Below, piece after piece: positions 23,267-63,735 of a DNA stretch of 64,000 nucleotides (positions are counted from its first letter, which is position 1; each line of letters opens with the position of its first letter). The stretch comes from Paraescarpia echinospica (taxonomy: Eukaryota; Annelida; Polychaeta; Sabellida; Siboglinidae), in assembly GCA_020002185.1 (NCBI GenBank), contig CM034535.1:64908757-64972756 (forward strand), read 5' to 3'. The position numbers and the translations under genes are program-made. Below the pieces are notes generated by a model that searched no databases, was not told the origin of the DNA, and was given only the letters and a program-made list of their open reading frames with translations.

Positions 23267-26200
23267 CTGGTTAAGGCAAGGACATGCTTAGAGTTAACAT
23301 AGAATTAATATATAATTAACATATAATTAACGACTCATCATTTAATCAAAACTTTTTCAGGCCTGATGATCTGGGTAAGGCAAGGTGTGCTTGGAGTTAA
23401 CATAAAATTAATGATTCTTTATGGCATGGCAATCTTGGTAAGGCAAGGACATGCTTAGAGTTATATAATTAACAATTCTTCAGGCCATGGCGATCTTGGT
23501 AAGGCAAGGACATGCTTAGATTTAACATGAAATTAACAACTCTTTAGGCCGTTGCAATCTGGGTAAGGCAAATGTGCTTTGAGTTAACATAGAATTAATG
23601 ATTATTCAGGCCGTTGCAATCTGGGTAAGGCAAGGACATGCTTAGAGTAAACATAGAATCAATGATTCTTCAGGCCATGATGATCTGGGTAAAGTAAGGA
23701 CACTGTTTAGAGTTATCATAGAATTAATGACTCTTCAGGCCGTGGCAATCTGGGTAAGGTAAGGTCATGCTTAGTTGACAGAATTAACACATTTTCAATC
23801 CATGGCAATATGGGCATGGTGACAGCTTAGAGTTAAAACAGATTTAGTTACTCTTCAATACATGGTGAACTGGGAATTGTAATGACATTAGACTTTATTT
23901 ACAGTATTAATAAGTCATCAGTCAACTGTGATATGGGAAATGTAACAGCATCTACAGAACAGTGGTTGATTCTGTTAATCATATTAGTATATGCACAGCT
24001 CAGATCACTTGTGTTCTGCCATATAGTAAACATTTATTGTACGGTGTGGAGGACAGTGTATGCACATTTATTGTACGGTGTGGAGGACAGTGTATGCACA
24101 TTTATTGTACAGTGTGGAGGACAGTGTATGCACATTTATTGTACAGTGTGGAGGACAGTGTATGCACATTTATTGTACGGTGTGGAGGACAGTGTATGCA
24201 CATTTATTGTACGGTGTGGAGGACAGTGTATGCACATTTATTGTACGGTGTGGAGGACAGTGTATGCACATTTATTGTACGGTGTGGAGGACAGTGTATG
24301 CACATTTTATTGTACGTGTGGAGGACAGTGTATGCACATTTATTGTACGGTGTGGAGGACAGTGTATGCACATTTATTGTACGGTGTGGAGGACAGTGTA
24401 TGCACATTTATTGTACGGTGTGGAGGACAGTGTATTTATTGTACACATTTGCAGTGAGGACAGTGTATGCACATTTATTTACGGGTGTGGAGGACAGTGT
24501 ATGCACATTTATTGTACGGTGTGGAGGACAGTGTATGCACATTTATTGTACGGTGTGGAGGACAGTGTATGCACATTTATTGTACAGTGTGGGTGAGGAC
24601 AGTGTATGCACATTTATTGTATGGTGTGGAGGACAGTGTATGCACATTTATTGTACAGTGTGGAGGACAGTGTATGCACATTTATTGTACGGTGTGGAGG
24701 ACAGTGTATGCACATTTATTGTACGGTGTGGAGGACAGTGTATGCACATTTATTGTACAGTGTGAAGGACAGTGTATGCACATTTATTGTACGGTGTGGA
24801 GGACAGTGTATGCACATTTATTGTACAGTGTGAAGGACAGTGTATGCACATTTATTGTACGGTGTGGAGGACAGTGTATGCACATTTATTGTACAGTGTG
24901 GAGGACAGTGTATGCACATTTATTGTACGGTGTGGAGGACAGTGTATGCACATTTATTGTACTGTGTGGAGGACAGTGTATGCACATTTATTGTACGGTG
25001 TGGAGGACAGTGTATGCACATTTATTGTACAGTGTGGAGGACAGTGTATGCACATTTATTGTACTGTGTGGAGGACAGTGTATGCACATTTATTGTACGG
25101 TGTGGAGAACAGCATATACACATTTATTGTACGGTATGGAGGACAGTGTATGCACATTTATTGTACGGTGTGGAGTACAGTGTATACACATTTATTGTAC
25201 GGTTTAGAGGACAGTGTATGCACATTTATTGTACGGTGTGGAGGATAGTGTATGCACATTTATTGTACGGTGTGGAGGACAGTGTATGCACATTTATTGT
25301 ACGGTGTGGAGGACAGTGTATGCACATTTATTGTACGGTGTGGTGGACAGTGTATGCACATTTATTGTACAGTGTGGAGGACAGTGTATGCACATTTATT
25401 GTACGGTGTGGAGGACAGTGTATGCACATTTATTGTACTGTGTGGAGGACAGTTTATGCACATTTATTGTACGGTGTGGAGGACAGTGTATGCACATTTA
25501 TTGTATGGTGTGGAGGACAGTGTATGCACATTTATTGTACAGTGTGGAGGACAGTGTATGCACATTTATTGTATGGTGTGGAGGACAGTGTATGCACATT
25601 TATTGTACAGTGTGAAGGACAGTGTATGCACATTTATTGTACGGTGTGGAGGACAGTGTATGCACATTTATTGTACTGTGTGGAGGACAGTGTATGCACA
25701 TTTATTGTACGGTGTGGAGGACAGTGTATGCACATTTATTGTACGGTGTGGAGGACTGTGTATGCACATTTATTGTACGGTGTGGAGGACAGTGTATGCA
25801 CATTTATTGTACGGTGTGGAGGACAGTGTATGCACATTTATTGTACGGTGTGGAGGACAATGCAAGCACATTTTTTAAATGGACCACTGCCATGTAATAA
25901 ATTGTCAGCCATTTTCGTTTTTTCTACTTTTCAAAGTTACACCTGCCAAATACAATTACATCAATAAAAATCATCCCGTTTAAATTATATTCGTTTTTGA
26001 AAGTCTTCTAGCAAAATAGTACAGAAGAACATTAATTCAAATGCAGTTTAATAGTTGTTGTTAACACATATTTCAATACTAAAATCTGTAGATACAGTCG
26101 AACCTCGCTTTACAGTCACCTCAGTAATACAGCCACCTCACAATCAAGGTCACACTAGGATAGTCCTGTTAAAACAGTCACCTTGCAATTCAGGTCACTT

Positions 26201-32200: not shown

Positions 32201-35200
32201 AATGTTTTCAATATTTATATAGTCTTGTATATATGTATAAATTGTCTCAATAACCTATGATAATATGCTATGGAAGTGATAATTTGGTAGCTTGTATGCA
32301 GCCCTATCCTCTACACAACTGTCTTCATGGGTAGTTCAGAAACCAGGCAATCAATATAATATGCGCGAGTACGATACGTAATGTTCGTACTGGAAGTTAA
32401 CAAAGATTACATAACCTTAAACAGCTGGTAACGGTTTGCATAACTATGAACATACGTAATTTGATTATTCATAGAAAGGGTAATAGCGGGTTGAATTTAA
32501 AAAAAAACAAAGCATTACAGACCCTTCATGGAACCACAAATGAATGTGTGAAAGTTGGGTGCCCGAGATGTACATTGTCTACAAATGGCGTAATGTACTT
32601 AGGGTAGATTGATTATAGTTAGATATCTAGCTTATAAAACAGAGTACGTATGGGTTTTGTATGTCCGAGAATTTCTTCATCAGTTTCCTACTCACAGGAC
32701 TGAAACTTTGTTAGTGTTCTTACGGTCAGTTGGTCACCTCGATAGTACAGCCTCCTCGCAACTGAGGTCACCTTAGGACAGTCACAAACAATTTTTGTAA
32801 CAGACAGGCGCAGGAAATTAGTCCAGCTAATACAGTCACCTTGTTAGTGAGGTCACTCCCGAGGGTGACCTTAATAATGAGGTTTGACCGTATGTTTGTA
32901 CCTGATCGAGACATGCCGAGTGCGAGACACTTCTGTAGCCGGCAGTACTGACAGCGGTTGCGGGTCTGTACTGTGATGTCACAGTTCCTGTTGTAGTAAC
33001 ACTTCTTCCGACTCGGGTCACCAATGTCTTGTAGGGCGCGGCGGAAGAAACCCTGAAATCAGGACAGTGGGTTCGGGGTCAGTAAAAGTATTTAATGTAC
33101 AAAAGGTAAGTTCTTATAAAGTGCAGTATCCAGTCCTCTGGACTGCTCAAAGTGCTTTACACTTTACTCCCTGGCAGACCTATTCAATTGAACACCATCT
33201 CGACTTCTCTTGGAAGCTTCCCATGTAGAGAGATTGCGACATGTACAAATTATACAACACATTTACGTGGTAGAATTATACTAAGATATGCAAGAAAAAT
33301 TGACAAGTTGGTCTTACAAAAAATGACATTGATAAATCAGTTAAGTAAATTAGAATAACAAACACCAATTAGAAACACAAATTGCAGAAAACTAGTTTAA
33401 AAGAAAAGGCTGCACAAATGTGTGTATAAAATTTGTTTACATAAAATTGTGTTGCCAATGTTAAAGTATTTTTAAACAAATCAAGCAGAGTTTCTCTTTG
33501 ACAAATTCAAAAAATTTATCAGATATACTCAAGAATTTCATACAATAAAACAACAATTTGTATTTTAAAACATTTACCACATAAAATTCACATTTAATAA
33601 ATGTTAGAACATTGAAAAGTACATTTTAATATAGCACAACTTATAAGAAGATTTACTTACCTTGCACCCCTCACAAGCCAGCACCCCGTAATGAACCCCC
33701 GACGACCTATCGCCACAGACGAGGCAGCGTGGCACACGCAACGGCGCCCCATCACTAGTGACCTCTGGTGTTGACGGTATCACTGCAACAGCTTTCTGTT
33801 TGATAAAGGTCGGCTTCGCATCGATCGGTGCTATCGAGGAGGTGGCAAACGATATTGTAGACGACGATGTCGCCCCTTTTGGGGCAAGTAGCTGACGCTG
33901 CATGGCGGAAGCGAGGGAGGCTGTGGAGACAATGACAGGGGAGAAACGGGGAAGTGTCGCCACCATGTTCTCCTCAGGAAGGGAGGTGACAGTCGGCGCG
34001 TTGGTGACGACGTAGCCAGAATGGGAAGGAAGTAACAGTCTGTGTCCTTGTTCGTCGACCGTCACAACCGTCATCTGGCAATACAAGGAGACGTGTTACA
34101 TGAGTTTTTCAAGGTAGAAAATGCATAATGCAACTGAACATAACAAGAGTAAAAAACAAAACAGTAACATGATGATTTAGCTTAGGAAGATCATGTCTGA
34201 GGTATCCACAAGAAACATGGATCAGAAATTCTTCTTAATAATAAATAATACAAATATTTATACAGCATCTTTTTCAGCCACGAACTGCTCTTTCATAGGC
34301 TGATTTAGCACTTTGCAAATCAAGTTCACTAATGTTTTAATTTGTAGTGCAGTCAGTTTTACAAAAGAAAGAGTACTTTTGCAAAAAAGCATCAAAAGAA
34401 TCAACTTCAAATGTTGTTTATTCTAGTGGTGTACATTATGGATTTACATAATTCCTTGAAAACCCTGCAAAATGCATATATATATATATATTAAAATGTA
34501 AACATTAATTTAATCATTATTTTAGCAACTGAAAATATTATATATATCTATGAGGCCAGAGCAAACCTGACTTTACTATGATACACAAGTAATTTCACAA
34601 TTTTTTACTGATCACCAGATCTGCTGAAAACTAGTCAAACCATAGTGCATACCTGCTCAGTGCTGCCACTTGGACTGTCCGAGTTTTCGATGTGCTTGTT
34701 CATCGCCATAATCTTGACATGCTTGACAGTCCCGTCGGAGTTGGTTTCAAAGTCGACGGTGTCACCATGTTCATTGACAGACATGACCTGCACATGGTCG
34801 CGGTCGACGGTATGTTCGTCATATAATGATGCTTCACCCAGCTCAAACATGATTCGCTTACCTCCGACTACATTCCCTTCTGTGTTCACCACTTGTTTTT
34901 CTGATGGCTCATTCGTTTCGATGATGATAATCTGGCCTGGAAAATCATCGTCAGTGGCGCAGATCGAAGCCTGCGATTTAACATCTGATATCATGAGTTC
35001 TGATGTCGATTCGGCATGATCGATCGCAGCGTCGTTTAAAGTCGTGCTTAACACTATACTAGATTCAGTGGATGGCAGATCTTGGGTTAGCATCACCTCC
35101 TGGGACACAGTAGATACCACTTCCTCTACTAGAGATGGCATTGTCTCTTGTGACATCGACGACACTGCATTCTGTTCGACGCTGGATGCTGCCTCCTGTG

Positions 35201-39040: not shown

Positions 39041-42000
39041 CTTCATACATACATACATACATACATACATCCTCTTCGGTCTTCAGGCAAATTTGCCTAT
39101 GTACCGCTCTTTAACCATTGTTGCTTTATAATCAAATTTGACTGGTTGGTGCATCCATAATATATCGAGTTGGTTCTTCAGTGCATTGACAGTTGGAGCT
39201 GTGACAAAGGCTTCGGGTAAGGTGTTCCATACATCAATTACTCTCTCACTAAAGAAGTGTCTCCTTAGTTCTCGTTTACTCCTGTTTTTATAAAACTTTA
39301 AAGAATGCCCCCGTGTTCCTTCATACAGGTCCAGGTTAAACATAGTGTGCGTGCAAGTAAATATGCCATTCAAGTATCTGAAAACATTAATAACGTCCCC
39401 TCATAATCTACGATATGTTAACGTTGGTAAGTTTAGGACCTTTAGTCTTGTTTCATAATCAGAATGTTTTAATTCTGGCACCATTCGTGTTGCTCTTCGT
39501 TGGACAGCCTCCACAGCATCAATATCGTACTGATACTGTGGAGACCAGACTGCTACGCCATACTCCAGAGATGGTCGGACAAGTCCCTTATAAAGATGCA
39601 GAAAGGTTATCTTGTCTAGATATTGATATGTACGACGAATTACACCCAGCAACTTGTTTGTGTTAGATACAGCCTTTTGGATATGTTGCGTGAATTTCAG
39701 CTGATCATCGACATGGATGCCCAGGTCTTTCTCGACATGGCTACACTCCAGAGGATTTGTACCTGCTACTGTAGTCAAGGTGTAGTTAAAATCTGGGTTC
39801 CCATGTCCAATTCTCATTACTTTGCATTTGTCTGGGAAAAAGTTTAACTGCCACTTTTCAGCCCATTCCTGTAATTTGTCTAGGTCTTTCTGCAGATCTA
39901 CGCAAACTTTTCTTGTTGAAATTTCTTGGTATATTTTTGTATCATCCGCAAAAATCTTCATGCCACATCCTACTACATTTGTTATATCATCAATATACAA
40001 TATAAAAAGAATGGGGCCAAGAACACTTCCCTGGGGTATCCCACTCAGAACATCTGACCAGGGGGATGATACACCATTGACTAAGACCCTTTTCTTGCGG
40101 CATGTGAGGAATGCTTCTATCCATTTCAGTAGTTTTCCTTTGATTCCATATCCATTTAACTTTGAAAGTAGTCTCTGATGCGGTACCGAGTCAAATGCCT
40201 TCTTGAAGTCCATGTATATAGCGTCTACACATTTTCCTTCATCTAATGTTCTTGTCCAGTCATCCAGCGTTGAAATTAGTTGTGTGATACATGATCTACC
40301 AGCAATGAAACCATGCTGCTGGTCTGCAATTAACTTGTTAGTTTCCATGTGTGTTATAATGGCATCCTTAATCAGCGATTCCATGACTTTACAAGCCACT
40401 GCAGTCAAGCTTACTGGCCTGTAGTTTGCTGCTAGATGCCTACAGCCTTTCTTGTAAATTGGTGACACATTCGCAGTTTTCCAAACTTTTGGTAATATGC
40501 CTGTATCCAAGGACTTCCTGAATTTGATGTATAATGGCACTCTCAGTTCCTTCGTGAGTTCCTTTAGTACACGGGGGTGTATACCATCAGGTCCTGGTGA
40601 TTTCCCAGTTTTGAGATCTCTCAGTTTTTTCTCAACATCTTCAATGGTGAAGTTGATATCATCTAGGGTATCGATTCCCTGGTGCTCCCTGGTGCTCCCT
40701 GGTACATTTGTTAAATCTTCCCTAGTGAAAACATCACTAAAGAATTTACTCAGAACCTCTGCCTTCTCTTTGTCTGTAGTTGTTAGTTCTTTAGTGTCTT
40801 CCTTTTGGAGATCACCAACTGTTGGTCTTGTTTTCATTTTTGACCGAGCATAGTTCCAGAAATGCTTTGGATTGCTTTTAATCTCATGTGCAATGGACTG
40901 CTCAAGTGTCTGGACTGCCTGTCGAGTAGCTCTTCTTGCTTGATTCCTAGCTTTCGTGTAATCTAGGTAGTCTTTCCATTCCTTTGTTCGTAGGTATTTC
41001 TTCCAAGCCCTGTGCTTTTTCCTCACTTTCTCCATTGTTTTCTTGTTCATCCATAATGGTTTATACTTTCCTGATTCCCTTGTTTTCTTCTTGTGGATAC
41101 ATTCATGATCTGCCTTTTCTAGTCTACTTGTAAGCATTTCCCAGCTTTCCTCTGGATCTAGTTTCTCAAATTTGGTTTCCCAGTTATCTCGTAACATTTC
41201 CCGTAATTGTTCATAATTTCCCTTCTCATACATGAACGTTTCGCTGCTTTGACCTGGAACTGGTGTATGACATTGGTAAGTAAATGTGATCAAACAGTGG
41301 TCACTCTTTCCGAGAGGATCCTTGACATTGTAGTGGTTTACCATGTCCTCTTCATTAGAAAAGACTAAGTCTAATAGATTGATGATCAACAACTGAATGA
41401 AGTAGAGAAATATACATACCTGGGTGCAAACGTCAGCAAGCAAGGAGGGGATGACGATATTAACAACAGAATATGAAAAGCAAGGACATCATTCATGAAA
41501 CTCAAATGTGTACACATTAAAAACTAAACTCAGATTATACAATACTCTGGTCAAATCAGTGTTACTGTATGGATGTGAAACATGGAAAGTAAACAAATGC
41601 GACAACAAAAAACTTGACATTTTCCATTTCAACTGTCTCAGAAGAATTTTAAAAATTAGATGGCCAGTAATAATTTCGAACAAAGACATTGAGAACATAA
41701 CAGCAGAAGAGAAGATCAGCACAGAAGTACAGAGAAGAAGGTGGAATTGGATCGGACATGTGCTGAGAAAGAAGGACCAAAACCACTGCCTGACAGCACT
41801 GACATGGACGCCGGAAGGAACAAGAAAAGTTGGTCGACCAAAAACAACGTGGAGAACCAGTGGAAAAAGAACGGAAGCAACAGGGCTGGGCAACTTGGAG
41901 CAAAGCCAGACACATAGCCATTGACAGGGCGAGGTGGCGGAGTCGCACAGCAGCCTTATTGGCCACAAGGCCCGAAGAGGATAGGTAAGGTAATAGATAT

Positions 42001-51800: not shown

Positions 51801-54800
51801 GTTTTTGCTCAAAAACGTTTTTCATGTCATGTTTTCTTACACAAATCTTCCTGTTTTAAATTAAACACGCCCACAGCTGCCAAGTCATTTTATATTTTAA
51901 CCCATTGTTTCAGTACACAGCTATTTTTTGCGTGTAAAGTAATAGAATCACAATTTGATTCTATAAGCAGCTGATTAACTAAAGTGAATTTCTAAGAAAA
52001 TGACAAAAAAAATTTGTTTTCATATTGATTTGTTCTGTTGGTCGTTATCATTATTGTGCAGCCGTAGTGTCCCGTGGTTGGGCGAACACCTCAGCATGTC
52101 GTTTCCAAATCTGCCTGTCATGCACTGTCCTCTGACAGATGTTGCCATTCCAGTACTCGTCTAGTTTGTCTCTTCACCGTCTAGATCGTTTCCCTTCGTA
52201 AGGTCTCCAGGTTGTGATACGCGATGTCCATCAGTTATCTCGTATCTGCTGATGTGCCCTGCCCAGGTTTACTTCTGCCTTCTGATGATTTGTTCTATCA
52301 CGTCTATAACCTTTGGCTTCTCTCTTACCCAGATGTTTGTTTTCTCTCCCGATATGTGATGTTTAACATACTTCTTTCCATCTTTGTTTGTGCGGCTGCT
52401 AGCTTGTTCTTTGCCTGGATGTTGAGTGCCCATGTTTCCGCACCATATGTCATCGCTGGAAATACGCAAGAGTTGTAGACTTGTCTCTTTAAGCAGGTTC
52501 CTGAAAATGTCGCGGTGTTTGGCGAATGCTGTCCAGCCGGCGGTGATTCTTCTTTGAATCTCCTTGTCTTGGTTTTTGTCTCTGATATTGTATCGCTGTC
52601 CCAGATAGACATAGCTTTCAACTTTCTCTATCTGTGTCGTGTTTATATATATTGGTGTGTCATTTTCTAGCATCACTTTTGTTTTCGAAATGTTCATCTT
52701 CAGACCTTGTTTTTCACTTTCATCAGCTAGCGAAGCGAATTTGACTGAGATATTCTCCGTCTATCCACAAGCCTCTGGTTTCCCAGGTTTTATTGGTATT
52801 CTTGAATAAAAATTCATAGATAGATGAAAATTTGGACTTTTGTCAATCTTCCATAAACTTGTCCAACTAACCACTGGGTGTGATTCCATTAATCAATATT
52901 AAGCACATTTTAACACTGTGGGAAAATGGAATGATCCCTTCTCAGCCATTTTGATTGTACTAAATGGCTATAGTGCATGCTTGTGTCAATCAGTGTGCAT
53001 GGTCACCCTTCACCTATCTCACCTTGCCTCTTCCTATCTCACCTTACCTCTTCCTATTTCACCTTACCTCTTCACCTATCACACCTTGCCTCTTCACCAA
53101 TCTCACCTTACTTCTTCGCCTTTCTCACCGTATGTCTGTAACTATCTTCACCTATATCACCTTACCTCTGCAACTATCTCACGTTATCTCTTCACCTATC
53201 TCACCTTATCTCTTCACCTATCTCATCTTACCTCTTCATCTACCTCACCTTACCTCTTCACCTATCTCACCTTACCTCTTCACCTATCTCACCTTACCTC
53301 TTCATCTACCTCACCTCAGACAAAAGTTTATAAACATTTATGATGATATCATATTGGTCTGAATCGTAAAATATCAATGTCCAACACCTGACAAAACTGC
53401 CGGTGACCCCCACACCCCCAAACAAAAGTAATTTTGTTTTATATCGGACATCTACGTTCTGAGATGATCCTTACAATAACAATCATCCTTCACTACACGC
53501 ATATATTTATGATGACGTATTTTCTCTGTAAATCACTTTTTGTGACTAATTTAATCTTGCACTACAATTAACATTTTAAAGTTAACGGTTTTGTGATTGT
53601 GCTGTTATAGCCACCAGTTGTGCAATCTGCCATCAGGCGTACCATGTGATGAGGAAGGCAGTGAATGTGGCTCGATGCAACCCGCGAGGAAAGAAGAAAG
53701 TTTTACAGTTCACTTAGGTACACGAGGCTGCTTTCTTAAACTATCAAACAAGATATTTTTCACCCATTCCGCAAATACTTATAAAAAACATATGGGACCA
53801 TTTCACTAAGATAATTAATTCGTTATGTAAATCCAGTGGAACCTCAGTATATAGGTACAGTAGTTCCTCACTATACAGGTACAGTGGAACCTCGTTATAC
53901 AGGTACATTGGAGCCTCACTATACAGGTATAGTGGAACCTCACTATACAGGTACAGTGGAACCTCACTATACAGGTATAGTGGAACCTCACTATACAGGT
54001 ACAGTGGAACCTCACTATACAGGTACAGTGGAACCTCACTATACAGGTACATTGGAACCTCACTATACAGGTACATTGGAACCTCACTATACAGGTACAG
54101 TGGAACCTCACTATACAGGTACATTGGAACCTCACTGTACAGGTACAGTGGAACCTCACTATACGGGTACAGTGGAACCTCACTATACGGGTACAGTGGA
54201 ACCTCACCATACGGGTACAGTGGAACCTCACTATACGGGTACAGTGGAACCTCACTATATGGGTACAGTGGAACCTCACTGTACGGGTACAGTGGAACCT
54301 CACTATAAGGTACAGTGGAACATCACTATACAGGTACAGTGGAACCTCACTATACAGGAACAGTGGAACCTCACTATACGGGTACAGTGGAACCTCACTA
54401 TACTGGTACAGTGGAACCTCACTATACGTGTACAGTGGAACCTCATTATACTGGTACAGTGGAACCTCACTATACAAGTACAGTGGAACCTCACTATACG
54501 GGTACAGTGGAACCTCACTATACGGGTACAGTGGAACCTCACTATACGGGTACAGTGGAACCTCACTATACGGGTACAGTGGAACCTCACTATACGGGTA
54601 CAGTGGTTCACACCTAAATATTATAATTACTATTATTTTAGTTATTATCTAAGTACTTTTGAATGCATTGTTATATATCAAATATCGCCTGGCATTCAGT
54701 AAGTTTTCCTGATAAGAATGTGTTATCATTGCAGGCGCCCAACTAAAGACCATGCATAACTTGCGCCTGATTGGTGCAGATATACTCGATTTGTGTCGCC

Positions 54801-57800
54801 ACAAACCACAGAATGTAGGGTGAGTTTATTTCATTTTGCCAGATAGGTCTTAAAAAGAGCCAGTCTGTTGCTTGTTTTTCATTAATTAATTAATATTATG
54901 TTCTGATGACTATACTAACTATGTTGAAGGTATAGTATCCACCAAATTGTATTTAGTAAGCCTGTAACAACGTTCGCAATATGGAAGGTACTACCCGGAG
55001 CATGTTTAAATAGTAAACAAAATATCTGGTTTCAAAAGAAGCTTTATTGGCAATACAGCCGAGTCGGGCTGAGTTAACTGCAATAGTCCTTGATGTTCAA
55101 CGATGTCCCATTTTCACACGTTCAACACAGCAGACATCCTGTTACATATTAGTTAGCCTGTTAATTCCAGGTAGAGGAACTGACAGCTCCCTTTATGAAT
55201 ACTTCCTCAATAATACTGTATTTTTTATTTTAAAGCATTTCACCATACTGTTATTGTCTTATTTTAAAGCATTTCACCATACTGTTACTGTCTTATTTTA
55301 AAGCATTTCACCATACTGTTACTGTCTTATTTTAAAGCATTTCACCATACTGTTACTGTCTTATTTTAAAGCATTTCACCATACTGTTACTGTCTTATTT
55401 TAAAGCATTTCACCATACTGTTACTGTCTTATTTTAAAGCATTTCACCATACTGTTACTGTCTTATTTTAAAGCATTTCACCATACTGTTACTGTCTTAT
55501 TTTAAAGCATTTCACCATACTGTTACTGTCTTATTTTAAAGCATTTCACCATACTGTTACTGTCTTATTTTAAAGCATTTCACCATACTGTTACTGTCTT
55601 ATTTTAAAGCATTTCACCATACTGTTACTGTCTTATTTTAAAGCATTTCACCATACTGTTACTGTCTTATTTTAAAGCATTTCACCATACTGTTACTGTC
55701 TTATTTTAAAGCATTTCACCATACTGTTACTGTCTTATTTTAAAGCATTTCACCATACTGTTACTGTCTTATTTTAAAGCATTTCACCATACTGTTACTG
55801 TCTTATTTTAAAGCATTTCACCATACTGTTACTGTCTTATTTTAAAGCATTTCACCATACTGTTACTGTCTTATTTTAAAGCATTTCACCATACTGTTAC
55901 TGTCTTATTTTAAAGCATTTCACCATACTGTTACTGTCTTATTTTAAAGCATTTCACCATACTGTTACTGTCTTATTTTAAAGCATTTCACCATACTGTT
56001 ACTGTCTTATTTTAAAGCATTTCACCATACTGTTACTGTCTTATTTTAAAGCATTTCACCATACTGTTACTGTCTTATTTTATTTCACCAGCATTTTAAA
56101 GCATTTCACCATACTGTTACTGTCTTATTTTAAAGCATTTCACCATACTGTTACTGTCTTATTTTAAAGCATTTCACCATACTGTTACTGTCTTATTTTA
56201 AAGCATTTCACCATACTGTTACTGTCTTATTTTAAAGCATTTCACCATACTGTTACTGTCTTATTTTAAAGCATTTCACCATACTGTTACGGTCTTATTT
56301 TAAAGCATTTCACCATACTGTTACTGTCTTATTTTAAAGCATTTCACCATACTGTTACTGTCTTATTTTAAAGCATTTCACCATACTGTTACTGTCTTAT
56401 TTTAAAGCATTTCACCATACTGTTACTGTCTTATTTTAAAGCATTTCACCATACTGTTACTGTCTTATTTTAAAGCATTTCACCATACTGTTACTGTCTT
56501 ATTTTAAAGCATTTCACCATACTGTTACTGTCTTATTTTAAAGCATTTCACCATACTGTTACTGTCTTATTTTAAAGCATTTCACCATACTGTTACTGTC
56601 TTATTTTAAAGCATTTCACCATACTGTTACTGTCTTATTTTAAAGCATTTCACCATACTGTTACTGTCTTATTTTAAAGCATTTCACCATACTGTTACTG
56701 TCTTATTTTAAAGCATTTCACCATACTGTTACTGTCTTATTTTAAAGCATTTCACCATACTGTTACTGTCTTATTTTTCTGTACTGGAAAGTAAGGCAGT
56801 CATATGTATTTCCTAATTTAATCCACATAAGGGGTACAATAAAAACTTACAGTAGACTTTTTAAATCAGTTGGAAAAAATGGACCTGCGCTGGGTTTCAA
56901 ACGTGATACCCCTGGTATGGAAAGCGGACATGCAACCACTAGGACTAACCTGTCTTGCTGATTGCAATTTGTTCGTTTAGAATGTAAACATGTAAATGGC
57001 ATTTCTTAATTTTATTTCTTCACATGGTTACTTAAAATATCACAATGAATAATGGTTGCTACATAAACATCTGTCACGATCGCCTACATTTGAGTGAAAT
57101 GAGTTGTTAAAATGTGATAATATTGAAATTGTAATAAGTTAAGTAGGCCTATGCCTATGAGTACAGATATGCTGCTGCCACCTACCACTGCGTGAATACT
57201 GATTGCATTGAGACCGCGTTGTTTGCAGGCAGAAGTCTAACTGTTGACACTTTTCATTGAAATTTTGTTGGCTGTATAAGTGAAGAAATATATTAATCAA
57301 TAACTTGACGGACGCCAAAATGAGATGTAGCTCCATCTGAAGGAAAGATGTGAAATGCGAAAGAGGGCACTCACCCGTATAACTGATGTAACCAACATGT
57401 ACACGTACATGTTAAGCACTGATGATTTGAAAACATCAATAACTTAAAAACTATTCAAAATTTCTGCATACATCCACCGACATATTTGTAGATGGCATAA
57501 TTATCTTTACGATGATATAGACAAACATTAAATACTGCGGCTGGAACTCCACGTACAGCCCTTTGAAAGATTGAGCTCCCCCGAGTTCTCCACCCCCTGG
57601 ACGAATTTCGAAAATGTCTAAATCTACAAATCATCTCAATGGGCCTGCATGATCACAAGCAAAATTTCAGCCCGATACATACAAAACTGATGGAGATGAG
57701 GGGGCACAAACAAACGGAGAACGAACTGTTTTCTAAAATAGAGATGTTATTCCAATCTGTCCTTGTTAAGTATTTTCTCTTATCTTGTTATTCGTACACA

Positions 57801-60800
57801 TATGTGTTTATATTGTTTGGCAGATAGCCCATGATTTCCGCAGGATTTACCAAACATTGATTTGTCAATAACACCCTGCACAGTACACTATGTAGAGTAA
57901 TTAATGTAATGTAAATTTCCAAACATGTAATTTTTTAGGTTTGCTACACAGTAATAATTCGAAACATTTGAGTGAACATTTTTAAGACTGTGTATCCTGG
58001 CATGAGTCCCGATATTCCTGTGTCAACAATCTCTTGTGTATGTTTATCAGCTGGTTGCTTGCACTGTTTCCAACAAAATATTTCAAAATGTTCACAAGCC
58101 ATCAGTTGTGTACAATCTATGATGTACAGAAGAGATTATATGTAAATTACGCATGGTCATGTACTTTACTGGATGCTCAAAGTCAAAACAAGTGTTCTTA
58201 ATCTGTATTTAATTTGTGTATGTAGGATATATTGAAAAAAAAACAGTTATGCTACCTAAACATGAAAACTATTGCCATCATTAATTTTCAGGTCCATATC
58301 GCTTGTGTACCCACGATCTGAGCATAAAAAGTAATGGAGATGTACATGTTTTAGGAGACTGTGTCAAGATAGACAGCTGTAAGCAGGTTGTGAATGAATG
58401 AAGGGTTATTCCACACACGTAACACAATTATAACTACATGACGTGATAAAATAACAATAAAACAATCTGTCTGATTCTTCATGTACCTATGGTATGGCAA
58501 TATGCATTCAATATCGCTTCTAAACATAAGCTCATCCTGAAGACTGACATAAAAGCAGAGTATTGTGGCTTGGTAATTTACGCTTACATTTCAGCAGACT
58601 GCCATAAAACAAACATAAAAGTCATAATAAAACAATTTGTCTGGTCTTTCTAACTGTGGCCATATACATTCCATATATTTTCTAAGTGGGCACAGCATTT
58701 AACCGAAATGGACATTACAATTTACATAGTTTCTATGCATTAAAATCACATATTTTATACCTTCATAAACGCAACACCAAACTTTATGATTTGCATAATC
58801 AATCAGACTGAATTCCGAGATTACCATTCTAGCATTGGACGTTTTAATTCCCAAAAATCCAATGTTAAACCGTTCCATATTTTAAGAAAACAGTATCACT
58901 GACGTTGAGATAACAGCTGAAACCGTATGTTTATTGTGTTCTGGACACATGTCGTGTAATTAATGGCGTGGTTGTGTGCGGAGACGTGTGAAACTGCTGG
59001 TGCAGTGTATAGCGCACACAAAACCAATGTGTGAAATCGTAAAACTTGACTGCACACATAAATGTCATATTGGCGTGTCGTTTTGACATGTGTCATTATA
59101 AATATGTTTTTGTATACGGCCACATGGGGCACGTCTCAAAATAAATATTTTTTTTGTTTGGTAGTCTGTTGTGTGAAGATTTTAATGTTGCAAACAATCA
59201 CAAAGACACCCAATGTGTTGGTGTTTGCATGTTTTAACTTGGACATAATCAAAATGTTATACTTTCGCCTTCACAGGGAAATTAGTTACATGGTAAGAAT
59301 TCAATAAATTAGCACAGCTACGAAAATAAGCATTTAATCCATTATCGATATGCACTTTCAGTCTCTAAGCAGTTGTTTTTGCTGCCAAAGAAATGTGTTC
59401 CTGTCGTCTTACACGCTAACGTCATCTCATATCGGGCATTACACGGATAGGTCAATACGTTTTTCAAGATAACTTTTTTATATTGTTTCTAGGTGAATAG
59501 TTGATTACATTGTGTGTTTACTGTAGGTAAGGGAGACGTGGCATTTGACGTGTAATGCGTCTGCCTGTCCTCGATTGTTCGTCCGGTTGTCTTTTTGTGC
59601 GGTTGTCGTTTTCCAAAACGGTGTCTGGTAATTTATTGTTTGCTTTGTCATGGTTGGCTGCATTCTGCCATAATTCATCAACTTATTTGTGGAGTTGTGA
59701 GCTGTTAGTTGACTGTTGAAGTAAAGGCACTCTACGTGTCCCCTATATGTGGCATGTGCCCCAGGGGGGTGGGGGATAATTCACATACCAAACATATGCC
59801 TTGTTTCTTGGCAAGAGAAACTGACATGTTGAACATAAGGAGTTATATTTAACGATTTAAAAGTGATATGTTAGGTGCAAGCTGTAGAGTACTAATTAGA
59901 GGATTACATATGTGCATACATGCATGCGTGCGTACATGCATGTGTGCGTACATGCATGCATGTGTACATGCATGCGTGCGTACATGTTGTCAGGGCTTCC
60001 AACATAAGCAACTGCTTATGTTGTGGTCATATCAGAAGGGTGACTATGCCACAACCGGAGCACATCTCTGCTGTATTACAAATGCACAGCATATATAATT
60101 ATAACCATTTCTGTTGTGATCATATCAGAGAGATGATAATGCCACAACACAAACTCTTCTGTACAGTATCATAGTTGCACCACATACACAGCCGAACCTC
60201 ACTTTGTAGTCACCTGGTTAACTGCCACCTCGTTAGTGCAGCCCCCTTGTTAATACAGCCACCTCGTTATGAGTCGTTAATACAGCCCCCCTCATTAATA
60301 TAGCCCCCCTCATTAATACAGCTGCCTCACAATTCATGTCAGTCTAAGACAGTCCCAAAGATACGGTCATCTCGCCTCTCGGGTCACTTTGGCCCAGTCT
60401 GGAGGATGACCTTGAAGGTGAGGTTCCACTGTGTTATACAGTTACAACTGTTTGTGATGTGGATATCAGAGGGGTGACAATTCCCCACCCCAAACACCTC
60501 TCTATGTACAGTATAACAGGTACACCGTATGTACTCTACAATTACAACTGTTTGTGCTGTGGTCGTATCAGAGGGGTGACAATGCCCAACCTGAGCACCT
60601 CTATACAGAATAACACATCATATATATTCTACACTTACAACTGTTTATGCAGTGGTCCTATCAGAGGGGTGACAATGCCCAACCTGAGCACCTCTATACA
60701 GAATAAAACATCATATATACTCTACAATTACAACTGTTTGTGCTGTGGTCGTATCAGAGGGGTGACGATGCCCAACCTGAGCACCTCTATACAGAATAAC

Positions 60801-62324
60801 ACATCATATATACTCTACACATACAACTGTTTGTGCAGTGGTCCTATCAGAGGGGTGACAATGCCCAACCTGAGCACCTCTATACAGAATAAAACATCAT
60901 ATATACTCTACAATTACAACTGTTTGTGCTGTGGTCGTATCAGAGGGGTGACAATGCCCAACCTGAGCACCTCTATACAGAATAACACATCATATATACT
61001 CTACAATTACAACTGTTTGTGCTGTGGTCCTATCAGAGGGGTGACAATGCCCAACCTGAGCACCTCTATACAGAATAAAACATCATATATACTCTACAAT
61101 TACAACTGTTTGTGCTGTGGTCGTATCAGAGGGGTGACAATGCCCAACCTGAGCACCTCTATTATATATACTCTACTGTTTGGTCCTATCAGAGGGGTGA
61201 CAATGTCACCTCTATACAGAATATCACTCTACAATTACAACTGTTTGTGCTGTGGTCGTATCAGAGGGGTGACAATGCCCAACCTGAGCACCTCTATACA
61301 GAATAACACATCATATATACTCTACAATTACAACTGTTTGTGCTGTGGTCCTATCAGAGGGGTGACAATGCCCAACCTGAGCACCTCTATACATAATAAA
61401 ACATCATATATACTCTACAATTACAACTGTTTGTGCTGTGGTCCTATCAGAGGGGTGACAATGCCCAACCTGAGCACCTCTATACATAATAAAACATCAT
61501 ATATACTCTACAATTACAACTGTTTGTGCTGTGGTCGTATCAGAGGGGTGACAATGCCCAACCTGAGCACCTCTATACAGAATAACACATCATATATACT
61601 CTACAATTACAACTGTTTGTGCAGTGGTCCTATCAGAGGGGTGACAATGCCCAACCTGAGCACCTCTATACAGAATAACACATCATATGTACTCTACAAT
61701 TACAACTGTTTGTGCAGTGGTCCTATCAGAGGGGTGACAATGCCCAACATGAGCACCTCTATACAGAATAACACATCATATATACTCTACAATTACAACT
61801 GTTTGTGCAGTGGTCCTATCAGAGGGGTGACAATGCCCAACCTGAGCACCTCTATACAGAATAACACATCATATATACTCTACAATTACAACTGTTTGTG
61901 CTGTGGTCGTATCAGAGGGGTGACAATGCCCAACCTGAGCACCTCTATACAGAATAACACATCATATATACTCTACAATTACAACTGTTTGTGCTGTGGT
62001 CCTATCAGAGGGGTGACAATTCCCAACCTGAGCACCTCTATACAGAATAACACATCATATATACTCTACAATTACAACTGTTTGTGCAGTGGTCCTATCA
62101 GAGGGGTGACAATTCCCACCCCAAGCACCTCTATACAGTATAACAGGTACAACATAATTATGTACTGTACAATTACAACTGTTTGTGCTGTGGTCATATC
62201 AGAGGGGTGACGATGCCCCAGCCAGAGCGGCTCCAGACTGCGATGTCGCTCTACTCCAACAACTTGTGTGCGATGGTCCTGCTCGTAGACAACAGACTCA
62301 ACTCGTATACCGGGATCAAGAGAG
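45674..62324 (+). CDS. C12orf4-family protein (N-terminal 350 residues; continues past window)
   Basis: Orthologue candidate of human C12orf4, a conserved animal protein with no enzyme motif (DUF2362 family, from memory; literature links the human gene to intellectual disability and mast-cell degranulation). Eight exons join in phase: 45666-45836, 46530-46675, 47248-47429, 47886-47985, 51641-51786, 53611-53717, 54735-54819, 62203-62324. Diagnostic stretches: [20 protein letters not shown] (across the exon 1-2 border), SGEVD-like [49 protein letters not shown] and [20 protein letters not shown]. The start is put at ATG 45674 ([10 protein letters not shown]); a second Met four codons on is equally possible. 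The last exon ends in phase 1 at ..GIKR, matching the human exon context, and roughly 200 further residues should lie beyond 64000. Intron 7 (7.4 kb) is mostly repeats. Confidence 0.88.
45837..46529 (+). other. Intron 1 of the C12orf4-family coding region
   Basis: About 0.7 kb, AT-rich; no element recognised. Confidence 0.5.
46530..46675 (+). CDS. C12orf4-family exon 2
   Basis: Acceptor CCCCATTTCAG, donor CAG|GTAAAA. Encodes [20 protein letters not shown] and [19 protein letters not shown]; helical, Glu/Gln-rich. Confidence 0.9.
46676..47247 (+). other. Intron 2
   Basis: No element recognised. Confidence 0.5.
47248..47429 (+). CDS. C12orf4-family exon 3
   Basis: Acceptor TTCTCTTGCAG, donor AAAG|GTACCT. 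Encodes [20 protein letters not shown] then [16 protein letters not shown]; the best-conserved block of the N-terminal half. Confidence 0.93.
47430..47885 (+). other. Intron 3
   Basis: AT-rich; no element recognised beyond a short (ATA)n run near 47765-47780. Confidence 0.5.
47886..47985 (+). CDS. C12orf4-family exon 4
   Basis: The acceptor was chosen at GATGGTTTCAG|ACAACAAG because only this keeps the frame from exon 3 (..[16 protein letters not shown]). Donor ATGCAG|GTTCGT. Encodes [18 protein letters not shown]. Confidence 0.88.
48311..48619. mobile_element. MITE of about 310 bp with ATTGGGAC ends
   Basis: The left end ATGACCATATGTATTGGGAC and right end GTCCCAATACATACGGTCAT are inverted with one internal mismatch. 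Inside are further TATGTTTTGGGACACC blocks in both orientations and a (TA)n run at 48415-48434. The target-site duplication is not clear. No coding capacity. Confidence 0.75.
48985..49990. repeat. Direct duplication of about 420 bp, offset 585 bp
   Basis: Two collinear copies (about 49005-49400 and 49575-49990) share GGCGACCATGTTAACGTTTT, ATAAGAAAACCTGACCTAC, TTTACGAATGGATGCAGGCA and ACCCTTCCGCTTAGTAAAAT with scattered differences. The 170 bp between them is unique. It sits in intron 4 and has no coding frame. Confidence 0.85.
50022..50058. repeat. Perfect 10-bp inverted repeat with 17-base loop
   Basis: AGCCAGGGTT (50022-50031) and AACCCTGGCT (50049-50058) pair perfectly; the loop GTTTGCCATGCAAAACT is itself nearly palindromic. 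Possibly a transposon end; no partner was identified. Confidence 0.6.
50060..51230 (+). other. Intron 4, remaining part
   Basis: Mixed unique sequence. The 50100-50560 part is less AT-rich, with no supported exon. A 21-bp direct duplication containing GGCACCGAGGGTGGTCACT occurs near 51187-51225. Confidence 0.45.
51235..51430 (-). mobile_element. tRNA-derived SINE
   Basis: The minus-strand head carries A-box-like TAGTGTAGAGTTTAGC and B-box-like TGAGTTCAAGACC. The body continues with TAAGCATGGTATATTTGGGG and a GTCCCATCTCCATTTGGGAC hairpin near 51255-51275. Not a functional tRNA. Confidence 0.6.
51641..51786 (+). CDS. C12orf4-family exon 5
   Basis: Acceptor TGTAATTTTAG, donor ACCT|GTATGT. Encodes [20 protein letters not shown] and [15 protein letters not shown]. 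Confidence 0.9.
52055..52780 (-). pseudogene. RTE-like LINE C-terminal remnant
   Basis: Minus strand, in two or three frames: [79 protein letters not shown] and [20 protein letters not shown], then decayed sequence to about 52055 that suits the family C-terminus. At least two frameshifts. Inserted antisense in intron 5. Confidence 0.82.
53003..53317 (+). repeat. Pyrimidine-rich tandem repeat of about 22 bp
   Basis: Units of CTCACCTTACCTCTTCACCT type repeated about 14 times with variation. On the sense strand it forms a 300-base polypyrimidine run ending in CTCACCTCAG near 53319, that is, a strong but apparently unused splice-acceptor context 290 bases upstream of exon 6. Confidence 0.85.
53611..53717 (+). 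CDS. C12orf4-family exon 6
   Basis: Acceptor GTGCTGTTATAG, donor TTAG|GTACAC. The only phase-compatible reading gives [18 protein letters not shown] and ends [11 protein letters not shown], the latter matching the family. The first 20 residues are poorly conserved and are the least certain part of the model. Confidence 0.8.
53837..54605 (+). repeat. 24-bp minisatellite, about 32 units, resembling a MITE end
   Basis: Unit TACAGTGGAACCTCACTATA + CGGG/CAGG. The period is 24 (8 codons), so open frames appear on both strands by chance. The core CAGTGGAACCTC closely resembles the inverted ends of the MITEs at 26095, 43988 and 60189. The left half favours CAGG and the right half CGGG, indicating two expansion phases. 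Confidence 0.92.
54735..54819 (+). CDS. C12orf4-family exon 7
   Basis: Acceptor GTTATCATTGCAG, donor TAGG|GTGAGT. Encodes [20 protein letters not shown] and RHKPQNVG; ends two bases into a Gly codon. Confidence 0.93.
55227..56776 (+). repeat. 34-bp minisatellite, about 45 nearly identical units
   Basis: Unit ATTTTAAAGCATTTCACCAT + ACTGTTACTGTCTT. Only three deviations were noticed: TTATTG in the first unit, a 20-base scrambled insertion near 56079-56098, and one TTACGG near 56290. Such uniformity implies very recent expansion or ongoing homogenisation; copy number is probably polymorphic. Confidence 0.95.
56881..56956 (-). mobile_element. tRNA-derived SINE head
   Basis: The minus strand reads GGTTAGTCCTAGTGGTTGCA (A-box-like) and ACGTTTGAAACCCAGC (B-box-like). 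The body is not delimited. Confidence 0.55.
56960..59900 (+). other. Intron 7, non-repetitive part
   Basis: About 2.9 kb of AT-rich sequence; no exon, RNA gene or delimited element recognised. Confidence 0.45.
59909..59984. repeat. ATGCATGCGTGC-type purine-pyrimidine repeat
   Basis: Alternating ACATGCATGCGTGCGT blocks over 76 bases; many short palindromes, potentially Z-DNA forming. It lies just upstream of the first acceptor-like copy. Confidence 0.8.
60005..62202 (+). repeat. Tandem copies of the exon 8 splice acceptor (21 units)
   Basis: Two diverged units (junctions near 60035 and 60127), then 19 units with junction motif TATCAG|AGGGGTGAC whose GGGGTGAC begins at 60471, 60573, 60666, 60759, 60852, 60945, 61038, 61131, 61194, 61266, 61359 and every 92-93 bases to 62103. 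The genuine junction is at 62203-62204. Most units are 93 bp (31 codons) and lack stops, which creates a 583-codon artificial frame. Each unit includes ACTGTTTGTGCTGTGGTC before the AG and exon-like GTGACAATGCCCAACCTGAG after it. A family B MITE splits the old and young parts. Confidence 0.88.
60189..60431. mobile_element. Family B MITE inside the acceptor array
   Basis: The left end CAGCCGAACCTCACTTTGTA and right end AAGGTGAGGTTCCACTG are inverted. The interior has tandem ACAGCCACCTCGTTA / ACAGCCCCCCTCATTA blocks. It separates the two old units from the homogeneous array, so it landed between expansion phases or blocked homogenisation. Confidence 0.72.
62203..62324 (+). CDS. C12orf4-family exon 8
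   Basis: The acceptor GTGGTCATATCAG|AGGGGTGACG is the only nearby AG that keeps frame from exon 7 ([17 protein letters not shown]). It encodes [20 protein letters not shown] and ends IKR plus one base at donor AGAG|GTCAGT. The acceptor and first bases of this exon are the founder-like end unit of the 93-bp array upstream. Confidence 0.87.
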
Positions 62325-62935
62325 GTCAGTAGTTCATTGTGTGGACACTTTTAAAGCGTGTCTTAAGACACATTATTTTTAACTTGCTTTCAATGTCTAG
62401 TTTTATGTGACACTCGCTCCCCATCGTCATATCATAAATATTGATATATATTAGTGTATTATTTTACTTGCCTGCTAGTATACTAGTATATTATCCTAAT
62501 CATATTATATATATATATATACATATATATATATGTATGATTATATCACAATATCAAATTGTTTTAGTTGTATGTAATGTGTATTGAATTATAACTGAAT
62601 AATGACATTTTATTTTATTACTCACATTTTAGTACCTCTATTAATCCTTACGTAAGTATTAGTATTTTAGAAACATATTGTTAACACCATTGAACAGAGT
62701 TGTACTTTGGAAACGAATGTCTAAATAAAGTTATTATTATCGTGGTCATTTACAATGGACGCTCGCTATATAAAAAAGTATCGTATTTTTTTACATATGG
62801 CCGGGTGGTGGTTTGGTCATCACCATGTATCGAGAGGAAAAATAAATCACTACAATAGCGCCACCTACTGAGTATTGGCGGCCAGTAATGGAAGCCACTT
62901 TGGATCACCCAAAATCTTAAACCCACACGACTTAT
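62325..62935 (+). other. Intron 8, start
   Basis: AT-rich, with a (TA)n tract near 62507-62534. No exon recognised. Confidence 0.5.
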
Positions 62936-63735
62936 GAGTTCACAAGGAGTAGGGGGACCGTTTCGCTAACATTCTTATGAGTTCACAAGGAGTAGGGAGA
63001 CCGTTTCGCTAACATTCTTATGAGTTCACAAGGAGTAGGTGGAACGTTTCGCTAACATTCTTATGAGTTCACAAGGAGTAGGGGGACCGTTTCGCTAACA
63101 TTCTTATGAGTTCACAAGGAGTAGGGGGACCGTTTCACTAACATTCTTATGAGTTCACAAGGAGTAGGGGGACCGTTTCACTAACATTCTTATGAGTTCA
63201 CAAGGAGTAGGTGGACTGTTTCGCTAACATTCTTATGAGTTCACAAGGAGTAGGTGGACCGTTTCACTAACATTCTTATGAGTTCACAAGGAGTAGGGGG
63301 ACCGTTTCGCTAACATTCTTATGAATTCACAAGGAGTAGGGGGACCGTTTCGCTAACATTCTTATGAGTTCACAAGGAGTAGGGGGACCGTTTCACTAAC
63401 ATTCTTATGAGTTCACAAGGAGTAGGGGGACCGTTTCGCTAACATTCTTATGAGTTCACAAGGAGTAGGGGGACCGTTTTGCTAACATTCTTATGAGTTC
63501 ACAAGGAGTAGGGGGACCGTTTCGCTAACATTCTTATGAGTTCACGAGGAGTAGGGGGACCGTTTTGCTAACATTCTTATGAGTTCACAAGGAGTAGGTG
63601 GACCATTTCACTAACATTCTTATGAGTTCACAAGGAGTAGGGGGACCGTTTCACTAACATTCTTATGAGTTCACAAGGAGTAGGGGGACCGTTTCACTAA
63701 CATTCTTATGAGTTCACAAGGAGTAGGTGGACTGT
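62936..63735 (+). repeat. 43-bp minisatellite, about 18.5 units
   Basis: Unit GAGTTCACAAGGAGTAGGGG + GACCGTTTCGCTAACATTCTTAT. Variable sites: GGGGG/GGTGG, TTTCGC/TTTCAC/TTTTGC. It lies in intron 8; I cannot tell whether the following exon, outside the window, is related to the unit. Confidence 0.93.

What the first reader, a model, noticed from the sequence alone, without database searches (positions are those of the whole stretch)
60005..62324. A splice acceptor copied 21 times in tandem upstream of exon 8 of the C12orf4-family gene
Seen: the genuine junction TATCAG|AGGGGTGACGATGCCC (62203) is repeated in at least 19 upstream units, with the preceding 30-plus intron bases nearly unchanged, plus two diverged units. 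Known: acceptor choice depends on branch point, pyrimidine tract and AG, all of which the copies share. Inference: the spliceosome faces a ladder of near-equivalent acceptors, all in the phase of the real one. Most units are 31 open codons, so use of a copy would insert repeat-coded residues; the last unit is about 101 bp and shifts frame, ending at a TGA at 62208-62210. Copy number could therefore tune productive versus unproductive splicing.
Basis: partly seen in the sequence, partly recalled or inferred. Interest (0 to 1): 0.88.

Follow-up and report, generated by a model that had tools for sequence, protein, structure and literature searches.

The report
Splice acceptor multiplied by a minisatellite
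In a deep-sea tubeworm gene, a run of repeated DNA has copied the start of one exon, splice signal included, 21 times into the intron before it; spliced straight to the exon, each copy would spoil the message, so it most likely is a tolerated accident that the splicing machinery must ignore, and a good natural test of how it does so.

Summary
Confirmed. The acceptor of coding exon 8 (AG end 62202) of FERRY3/C12orf4 ends a tandem array with 21 upstream copies of the same junction: 19 at 60464-62096 (15 units of exactly 93 bp) and two older ones at 60030 and 60123, the second split by a 243-bp insert. Genome searches found one FERRY3 gene and no second place of the array; the host is a siboglinid annelid (90% protein identity to Lamellibrachia satsuma). 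Protein comparison supports 62203 as the real junction. Read on into exon 8, all 21 copies meet a stop (19 at 62208, two at 60172). Variants among units show no coding constraint. On a recalled matrix 7 of 21 copies score above the real site and 7 equal to it, but so do 67 other AGs of the intron's 312. Best reading: a minisatellite founded on the junction, tolerated as decoy acceptors with at most low, unproductive use. The nearest known case is a mirror image, the ABCA7 VNTR that carries a splice donor. The unit may itself derive from the first 80 bases of exon 8.

The parts
54735..54819 (+). FERRY3 coding exon 7, donor AGG|GTGAGT
   Evidence: Fy-3 Pfam match; joins in phase to 62203
60009..60188 (+). 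oldest, diverged end of the array: junction copies at 60030 and 60123 (first part of the second unit)
60189..60431 (.). 243-bp insert with imperfect terminal inverted repeats CAGCCGAACCTCAC / GTGAGGTTCCACTG (12 of 14 paired) splitting the second unit; holds the donor-like site AAG|GTGAGG at 60417
   Evidence: empty site gives a full 98-nt unit; (donor score 10.86 on a recalled matrix, above the 11 donors of the gene)
60464..62196 (+). main array, 19 units, 15 of exactly 93 bp (mean pairwise identity 96.9%), each starting at TATCAG|AGGGGTGAC
60348..62210 (+). open frame through the array in the register of exon 8; ends at TGA 62208-62210 because the last unit is 101 bp
62197..62202 (+). genuine acceptor TATCAG of coding exon 8
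62203..62324 (+). coding exon 8 (122 nt), donor GAG|GTCAGT
   Evidence: Fy-3 match; joins to the next exon at 64434
62102..62146 (+). hypothetical 45-nt in-frame cassette from the last upstream copy to CAG|GTACAA
   Evidence: sequence only, no RNA

Best explanation
A minisatellite was founded on the intron 7 / exon 8 junction of FERRY3 by a tandem duplication that included the acceptor and roughly the first 26-31 exonic bases or more, and later amplified on the intron side by unequal exchange or replication slippage. The 3'-most copy kept the whole exon and stays the working acceptor; the 21 upstream copies are decoys. Most transcripts use 62203, favoured by exon definition with the donor at 62324 (122-nt exon), and leaky use of upstream copies or skipping of exon 8 gives messages with premature stops that nonsense-mediated decay would remove. 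Shown: the array, its register, the conserved real junction, the stop in each of the 21 products read on into exon 8. Inferred: duplication history, preference for the 3'-most site, low use of the copies, decay of the products.
For: Junction copies far beyond chance and, by DNA search of 1.08 Gb, found only at this place (which skips simple repeats and very common words); one gene matched by the family search. Conserved junction without insert in 14 of 14 aligned homologues. The 15 full units are 92.5-100% alike and the edge units more diverged (77-91% to the consensus), as expected of a minisatellite. Other minisatellites are frequent: 9 TRF rows cover 11.6% of the window, two of them this array; 16 in 193,953 sampled bases, about 82 per Mb. 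No coding constraint. Stop in 21 of 21 upstream readings: 19 at 62208, 116 nt before the exon end. Skipping exon 8 also gives an early stop. In ABCA7, whose VNTR carries the exon 18 donor, frameshifting isoforms were 14 +/- 6 and 2 +/- 1%, the second, as I read the order, being retention of one unit (PMC5954066, passages).
Against: No RNA was seen, so low use of the copies is inferred. Copies are not weaker than the real site on a crude recalled matrix (7 of 21 above 4.88, 7 equal), and 62102 would give a 223-nt exon, within exon-definition range. Gaps avoid the junction zone in old copies, which could mean constraint. Preference for the 3'-most site is general knowledge, recalled. The ABCA7 comparison is human and concerns donors, and cycloheximide raised its stop-bearing isoforms, so 2% understates how often the copy is spliced.
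Confidence: 0.7

Rival explanations
1. Acceptor ladder as a rheostat: array length sets the share of unproductive splicing and so the amount of FERRY3.
For: All 21 upstream products read on into exon 8 are unproductive; in 19 the stop lies 116 nt before the exon end. Copies score like the real site. Gaps between old and young units avoid the junction zone. VNTR length changes splicing in ABCA7, there through exon 19 skipping (PMC5954066).
Against: No RNA, no length variation seen. No sign of constraint in substitutions. 82 of 312 AGs of the intron score at least as high as the real site on the same matrix, 67 of them neither the real site nor a copy, so the score does not single out the copies. 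In ABCA7 the use of the repeat donor did not change with VNTR length; skipping did.
Confidence: 0.1
2. The unit is a duplication of the 5' part of exon 8 itself (about +1 to +79), so the branch and pyrimidine region of today's acceptor is decayed exon, and the working acceptor moved from the leftmost to the rightmost copy. This is about origin and can hold together with the best explanation.
For: The stretch before each copy (CTCTACAATTACAACTGTTTGTGCTGTGGTCC) aligns to exon +47..+79, collinear with the 5' match: score 32, p 0.0017 on 3,000 shuffles; 1 of 6,152 other stretches of the window, both strands, reaches 32. Copy 60030 still reads VTMPQPE with only third-position changes.
Against: Weaker for the edge units (p 0.006 and 0.02), absent for the oldest unit (p 0.56) and for the stretch before copy 60030 (p 0.35); the middle of the unit matches the exon no better than shuffles (4 tests, p 0.11-0.59). 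The leftmost copy also has unit-like sequence before its AG, which this model needs an extra partial copy to explain. The comparison was chosen after seeing an alignment.
Confidence: 0.4
3. A poison cassette: one of the two old acceptors (60035 or 60128) with the strong donor-like site at 60417 inside the insert, giving an exon with a stop at 60172.
For: Donor score 10.86, higher than the 11 donors of the gene, on a recalled matrix; stop in both computed products.
Against: Old acceptors are ordinary in score (5.6 and 6.7; the gene's own range from 0.7 to 11.8); no RNA.
Confidence: 0.07
4. The array is exonic in some transcripts and the repeat peptide is made.
For: 620-codon open frame in the register of the gene; a hypothetical in-frame 45-nt cassette in the last unit.
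Against: Changes among units are mostly nonsynonymous; a given frame of a shuffled unit is open in 18% of cases; 19 of 19 readings through the main array stop at 62208; no database protein resembles the repeat peptide at E 0.001 (7,986 candidates scored).
Confidence: 0.03

Closest known systems
ABCA7 intron 18 VNTR (human; PMC5954066, passages read)
   Same: A tandem array in an intron whose unit includes the working splice site of the neighbouring exon; using the next copy adds one unit and shifts the frame.
   Different: There a donor in a 25-bp unit, about 12 to 427 units among people, with RNA data; here an acceptor plus exon start in a 93-bp unit, one assembly, no RNA.
UBC and other introns in tandem repeats, dual-specific splice sites (PMC10809524, abstract and passages)
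   Same: Splice sites repeated in every unit of a tandem array; [quoted passage not shown]
   Different: There one AGGT motif serves as donor and acceptor and the UBC units are coding; here the unit has an acceptor with only a weak donor-like GGG|GTGACA 4 nt on, and the units are intronic.
Alternative acceptors coupled to nonsense-mediated decay (general knowledge, recalled)
   Same: Upstream acceptors that bring in a premature stop.
   Different: Normally one or two sites, often conserved; here 21 similar ones with no constraint seen in substitutions.

Membership tests
Minisatellite (tandem array, unit about 10-100 bp) | Head-to-tail near-identical units of that size | tested here: met
   TRF period 93; 15 of 19 main units exactly 93 bp, 92.5-100% alike
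Minisatellite (VNTR) | Copy number differs among individuals | not testable with these tools
   one assembly; a single locus found
Splice-site-bearing VNTR (ABCA7 kind) | Array includes the canonical splice site of the adjacent exon | tested here: met
   the last junction hit, 62197-62218, is the acceptor of coding exon 8; acceptor here, donor in ABCA7
Splice-site-bearing VNTR (ABCA7 kind) | Array length alters splicing | not testable with these tools
   needs RNA from several individuals
Dual-specific splice-site array (UBC kind) | AGGT motif at each unit boundary | tested here: not met
   units read CAG|AGGGGTGAC; donor-like GGG|GTGACA scores 3.43 on a recalled matrix
Alternative acceptor with nonsense-mediated decay | Stop more than about 55 nt before a later exon junction | tested here: met
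   19 of 21 stop at 62208, 116 nt before the exon end; 2 of 21 at 60172; the 55-nt rule is recalled from mammals
Alternative acceptor with nonsense-mediated decay | Junction reads at the upstream acceptors | not testable with these tools
   no RNA collection on hand; among the 120 listed of 953 protein hits one is from a siboglinid by its name, and it has the plain junction; most unnamed rows were not opened
FERRY3 (C12orf4), Pfam PF10154 | Fy-3 profile over the exons, in order | tested here: met
   9 matches in order along one gene, none reported elsewhere in the genome at E up to 1

The most novel reading that the evidence does not exclude
A self-copied acceptor ladder: the working acceptor of FERRY3 was itself built from duplicated exon sequence, and the number of copies, changing with each array expansion, sets how much of the transcript is sent to decay, so that an mRNA-transport factor is tuned by a hypermutable splice-site array.
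Probability: 0.07. Interest if true: 0.8.

Novelty: new variant of a known kind. Interest (0 to 1): 0.42.

Why it matters
How the spliceosome picks one acceptor among near-identical neighbours is, to my knowledge, mostly studied with designed minigenes of a few sites. Here nature offers 22 in a row with much the same exon start and upstream sequence, differing mainly in position, in a conserved gene. It is the acceptor counterpart of the ABCA7 donor VNTR, and since the upstream products are unproductive, array length could be related directly to loss of message. If the copies prove silent, that too measures the strength of exon definition in an annelid.

Tried and rejected
RNA hairpins that might hide the copies: four 91-93-nt stretches folded, z from -0.67 to +1.01, nothing beyond shuffles. 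Selection on the acceptor zone of old copies: 7 comparisons, none significant for substitutions, though gaps lie mostly in the middle of the unit. Selection on the reading frame: none seen. Pfam hits of the 620-codon repeat frame, two of them above their cut-offs (PF21999, E 8.3e-8; PF04182, E 4.3e-6), have no single stretch that passes on its own; I take them for artefacts of a repetitive query. Indels in multiples of three in the 63- and 72-bp units looked suggestive by eye; they lie in two neighbouring units and may be few events, so I draw nothing from them. Related loci: the repeat-coded peptide has no relative at E 0.001; the tool states that G000 has no relatives there. Native intron before the oldest copy against the middle of the unit: no likeness (4 tests, p 0.08-0.91), so the alternative origin (old intron end plus exon start) gets no support from there either. 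Literature: 9 of 10 paper searches used; seven bore on repeats and splice sites (210, 36, 16, 0, 81, 8 and 1 papers found, of which 20, 20, 16, 0, 12, 8 and 1 were listed). In the listed titles and abstract beginnings I saw no array of copied acceptors; unlisted papers were not looked at and most subscription journals are not in the library, so this is not proof of absence. A survey of other exons for copied junctions was planned (Pfam PF00063, PF00005, PF00225) and not done: see below. The splice-site matrices (acceptor, donor) are approximate metazoan frequencies that I recalled, not trained on this species.

Full report
What is there. The window lies on a chromosome-scale contig (76.6 Mb) of a 1.08-Gb animal genome. 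The gene is FERRY3 (formerly C12orf4), a subunit of the FERRY complex (PMC11928052, beginning of the abstract as listed). Its Pfam profile Fy-3 matches nine stretches in order at this place, and the search reported none elsewhere in the genome.

Gene model. I joined twelve coding exons, eight of them in the window; the 11 donors begin GT, the 12 acceptors end AG and the frame stays open through to a final stop, also after moving the start of the fifth to 51662 because the homologues lack seven residues there. The finding's exon 8 is 62203-62324. Its junction with 54819 reads [16 protein letters not shown]. satsuma has the same residues, and none of 14 aligned homologues, chosen from the 120 listed of 953 hits, has an insert there. 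This supports 62203 as the working acceptor without RNA.

The array. The junction sequence occurs 21 times with at most three mismatches, none expected by chance; with the more diverged copy at 60123 there are 21 copies upstream of the real one. The 19 units from 60464 on are 102, 93 (six), 63, 72, 93 (nine) and 101 bp long. The 15 full 93-bp units are 96.9% alike on average; edge units are more diverged. The long second unit is a normal one split by a 243-bp element with 14-bp terminal inverted repeats (12 of 14 paired); joining its flanks gives a 98-nt unit, 82% identical to unit 60464. Taken alone, the stretch at 60123 is not significantly like exon 8 (p 0.40). So the array runs continuously from about 60009 to 62202. 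A DNA search of the genome found only this place, with the tool's warning that simple repeats and very common words are skipped.

What the copies could do. I spliced 54819 in silico to each copy and read on. The 19 main copies stay open through the array and stop at TGA 62208-62210, since the last unit shifts the frame by two; the two old copies stop at 60172. None of 21 restores exon 8. The stop at 62208 is 116 nt before the exon end, so by the mammalian rule (recalled) the messages would be decay targets. Skipping exon 8 also ends early. Of four cassettes tried, one is in frame: 45 nt, 62102-62146, with donor CAG|GTACAA; the intron after it would be only 56 nt.

How good the copies are. On a recalled acceptor matrix the real site scores 4.88; 7 of 21 copies score above it, 7 equal to it and 7 below. 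But 82 of 312 AGs in the intron reach that score, counting the real site and the 14 copies, so 67 others do as well; and real acceptors of the gene range from 0.69 to 11.83. The matrix therefore says that most copies are not weaker than the real site, and little more. Copies are not identical: six (60659, 60845, 61631, 61724, 61817, 62096) have a second AG ending 12 nt upstream, and 61187 has lost the TTACAAC stretch that could serve as branch site (the role is my reading).

Function or accident. Among 15 full units there are 12 distinct variants, 10 nonsynonymous and 2 synonymous in the open frame, against 205 and 60 possible, with 14 possible stops of which none is seen: no sign of coding constraint at this small number. 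The open frame itself is unremarkable: a given frame is open in 18% and some frame in 44% of shuffled units. Substitutions are not significantly rarer around the junction than in the middle of the unit (7 comparisons). Gaps are: 0-3 gapped columns around the junction against 6-13 in the middle in the same comparisons. Constraint on the acceptor would do that, and so would an indel-prone AT-rich middle; I could not tell them apart. No RNA structure stands out. Minisatellites are common in this genome: 16 arrays of period 10-200 and five or more copies in 193,953 sampled bases (20 stretches), 4.7% of the sequence; the window has 9 such TRF rows, two of them this array, 11.6%. With some 80 arrays per Mb, some should fall on splice junctions by chance; I could not survey other junctions to count them.

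Origin of the unit. Alignments make at least the first 26-31 bases after the junction exon-derived. The bases before it also resemble exon 8, at +47 to +79, in order with the first match (score 32; p 0.0017 on 3,000 shuffles; 1 of 6,152 other stretches of the window reaches 32). If real, the whole unit is a copy of the first two thirds of exon 8 and today's acceptor region is decayed exon. Edge units support this less (p 0.006, 0.02), the oldest not at all (p 0.56), and the middle of the unit shows no likeness to the exon. Nor does the intron before the oldest copy resemble the middle of the unit (4 tests, p 0.08-0.91), so the plainer origin, old intron end plus exon start, has no direct support from there either. 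I leave the exon origin at 0.4.

Comparison. The ABCA7 intron 18 VNTR in man begins with the GT of the exon 18 donor; frameshifting isoforms were 14 +/- 6 and 2 +/- 1% in the tissues given, the second, as I read the order, being one-unit retention, and cycloheximide raised stop-bearing isoforms; what grew with length was skipping of exon 19 (PMC5954066, passages). That is the mirror image of this case and makes low use of the copies the better bet; it also names exon 8 skipping as a thing to measure. UBC-type dual-specific sites (PMC10809524, abstract and passages) need AGGT, which these units lack.

Verdict. The regulatory reading is possible and untested. I rate it a junction-founded minisatellite, a new variant of a known kind, of moderate interest, mainly as a natural experiment on acceptor choice.

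Noticed in passing
53834-54606: A 24-bp minisatellite (about 32 units) in the intron before exon 54735-54819 of the same gene; of 29 near-matches to TACAGGTACAG in it, 14 hold AG|GT, a motif of the dual-specific kind, downstream of a weak real donor (53717, TAG|GTACAC, score 2.76).
   Followed up: partly
60189-60431: 243-bp element with inverted-repeat ends; the end motif GGAACCTCAC (its right end, reversed) also stands in the 24-bp unit at 53834-54606, which may have grown from such an end. Its copy number in the genome could not be obtained, the search did not complete.
   Followed up: partly
60417: Strongest donor-like site scored in 60000-62202, AAG|GTGAGG (10.86), inside the insert; with an old acceptor copy it would form a poison exon with a stop at 60172.
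   Followed up: partly
P0082 (Batillaria attramentaria FERRY3 prediction): A 17-residue tandem repeat, 13 full units, in the variable loop of the same protein in a snail: another minisatellite apparently read as coding in this gene.
   Followed up: no
39401-41488: 695-residue minus-strand open frame that looks like a LINE reverse transcriptase (by eye).
   Followed up: no
32768-34095: Minus-strand frames that look like the DNA-binding part of a nuclear receptor (by eye).
   Followed up: no
24030-25873, 55225-56777, 62931-63732: Three more long minisatellites (units 34, 34 and 43 bp; about 54, 45 and 19 copies), the last two in introns of the same gene.
   Followed up: no
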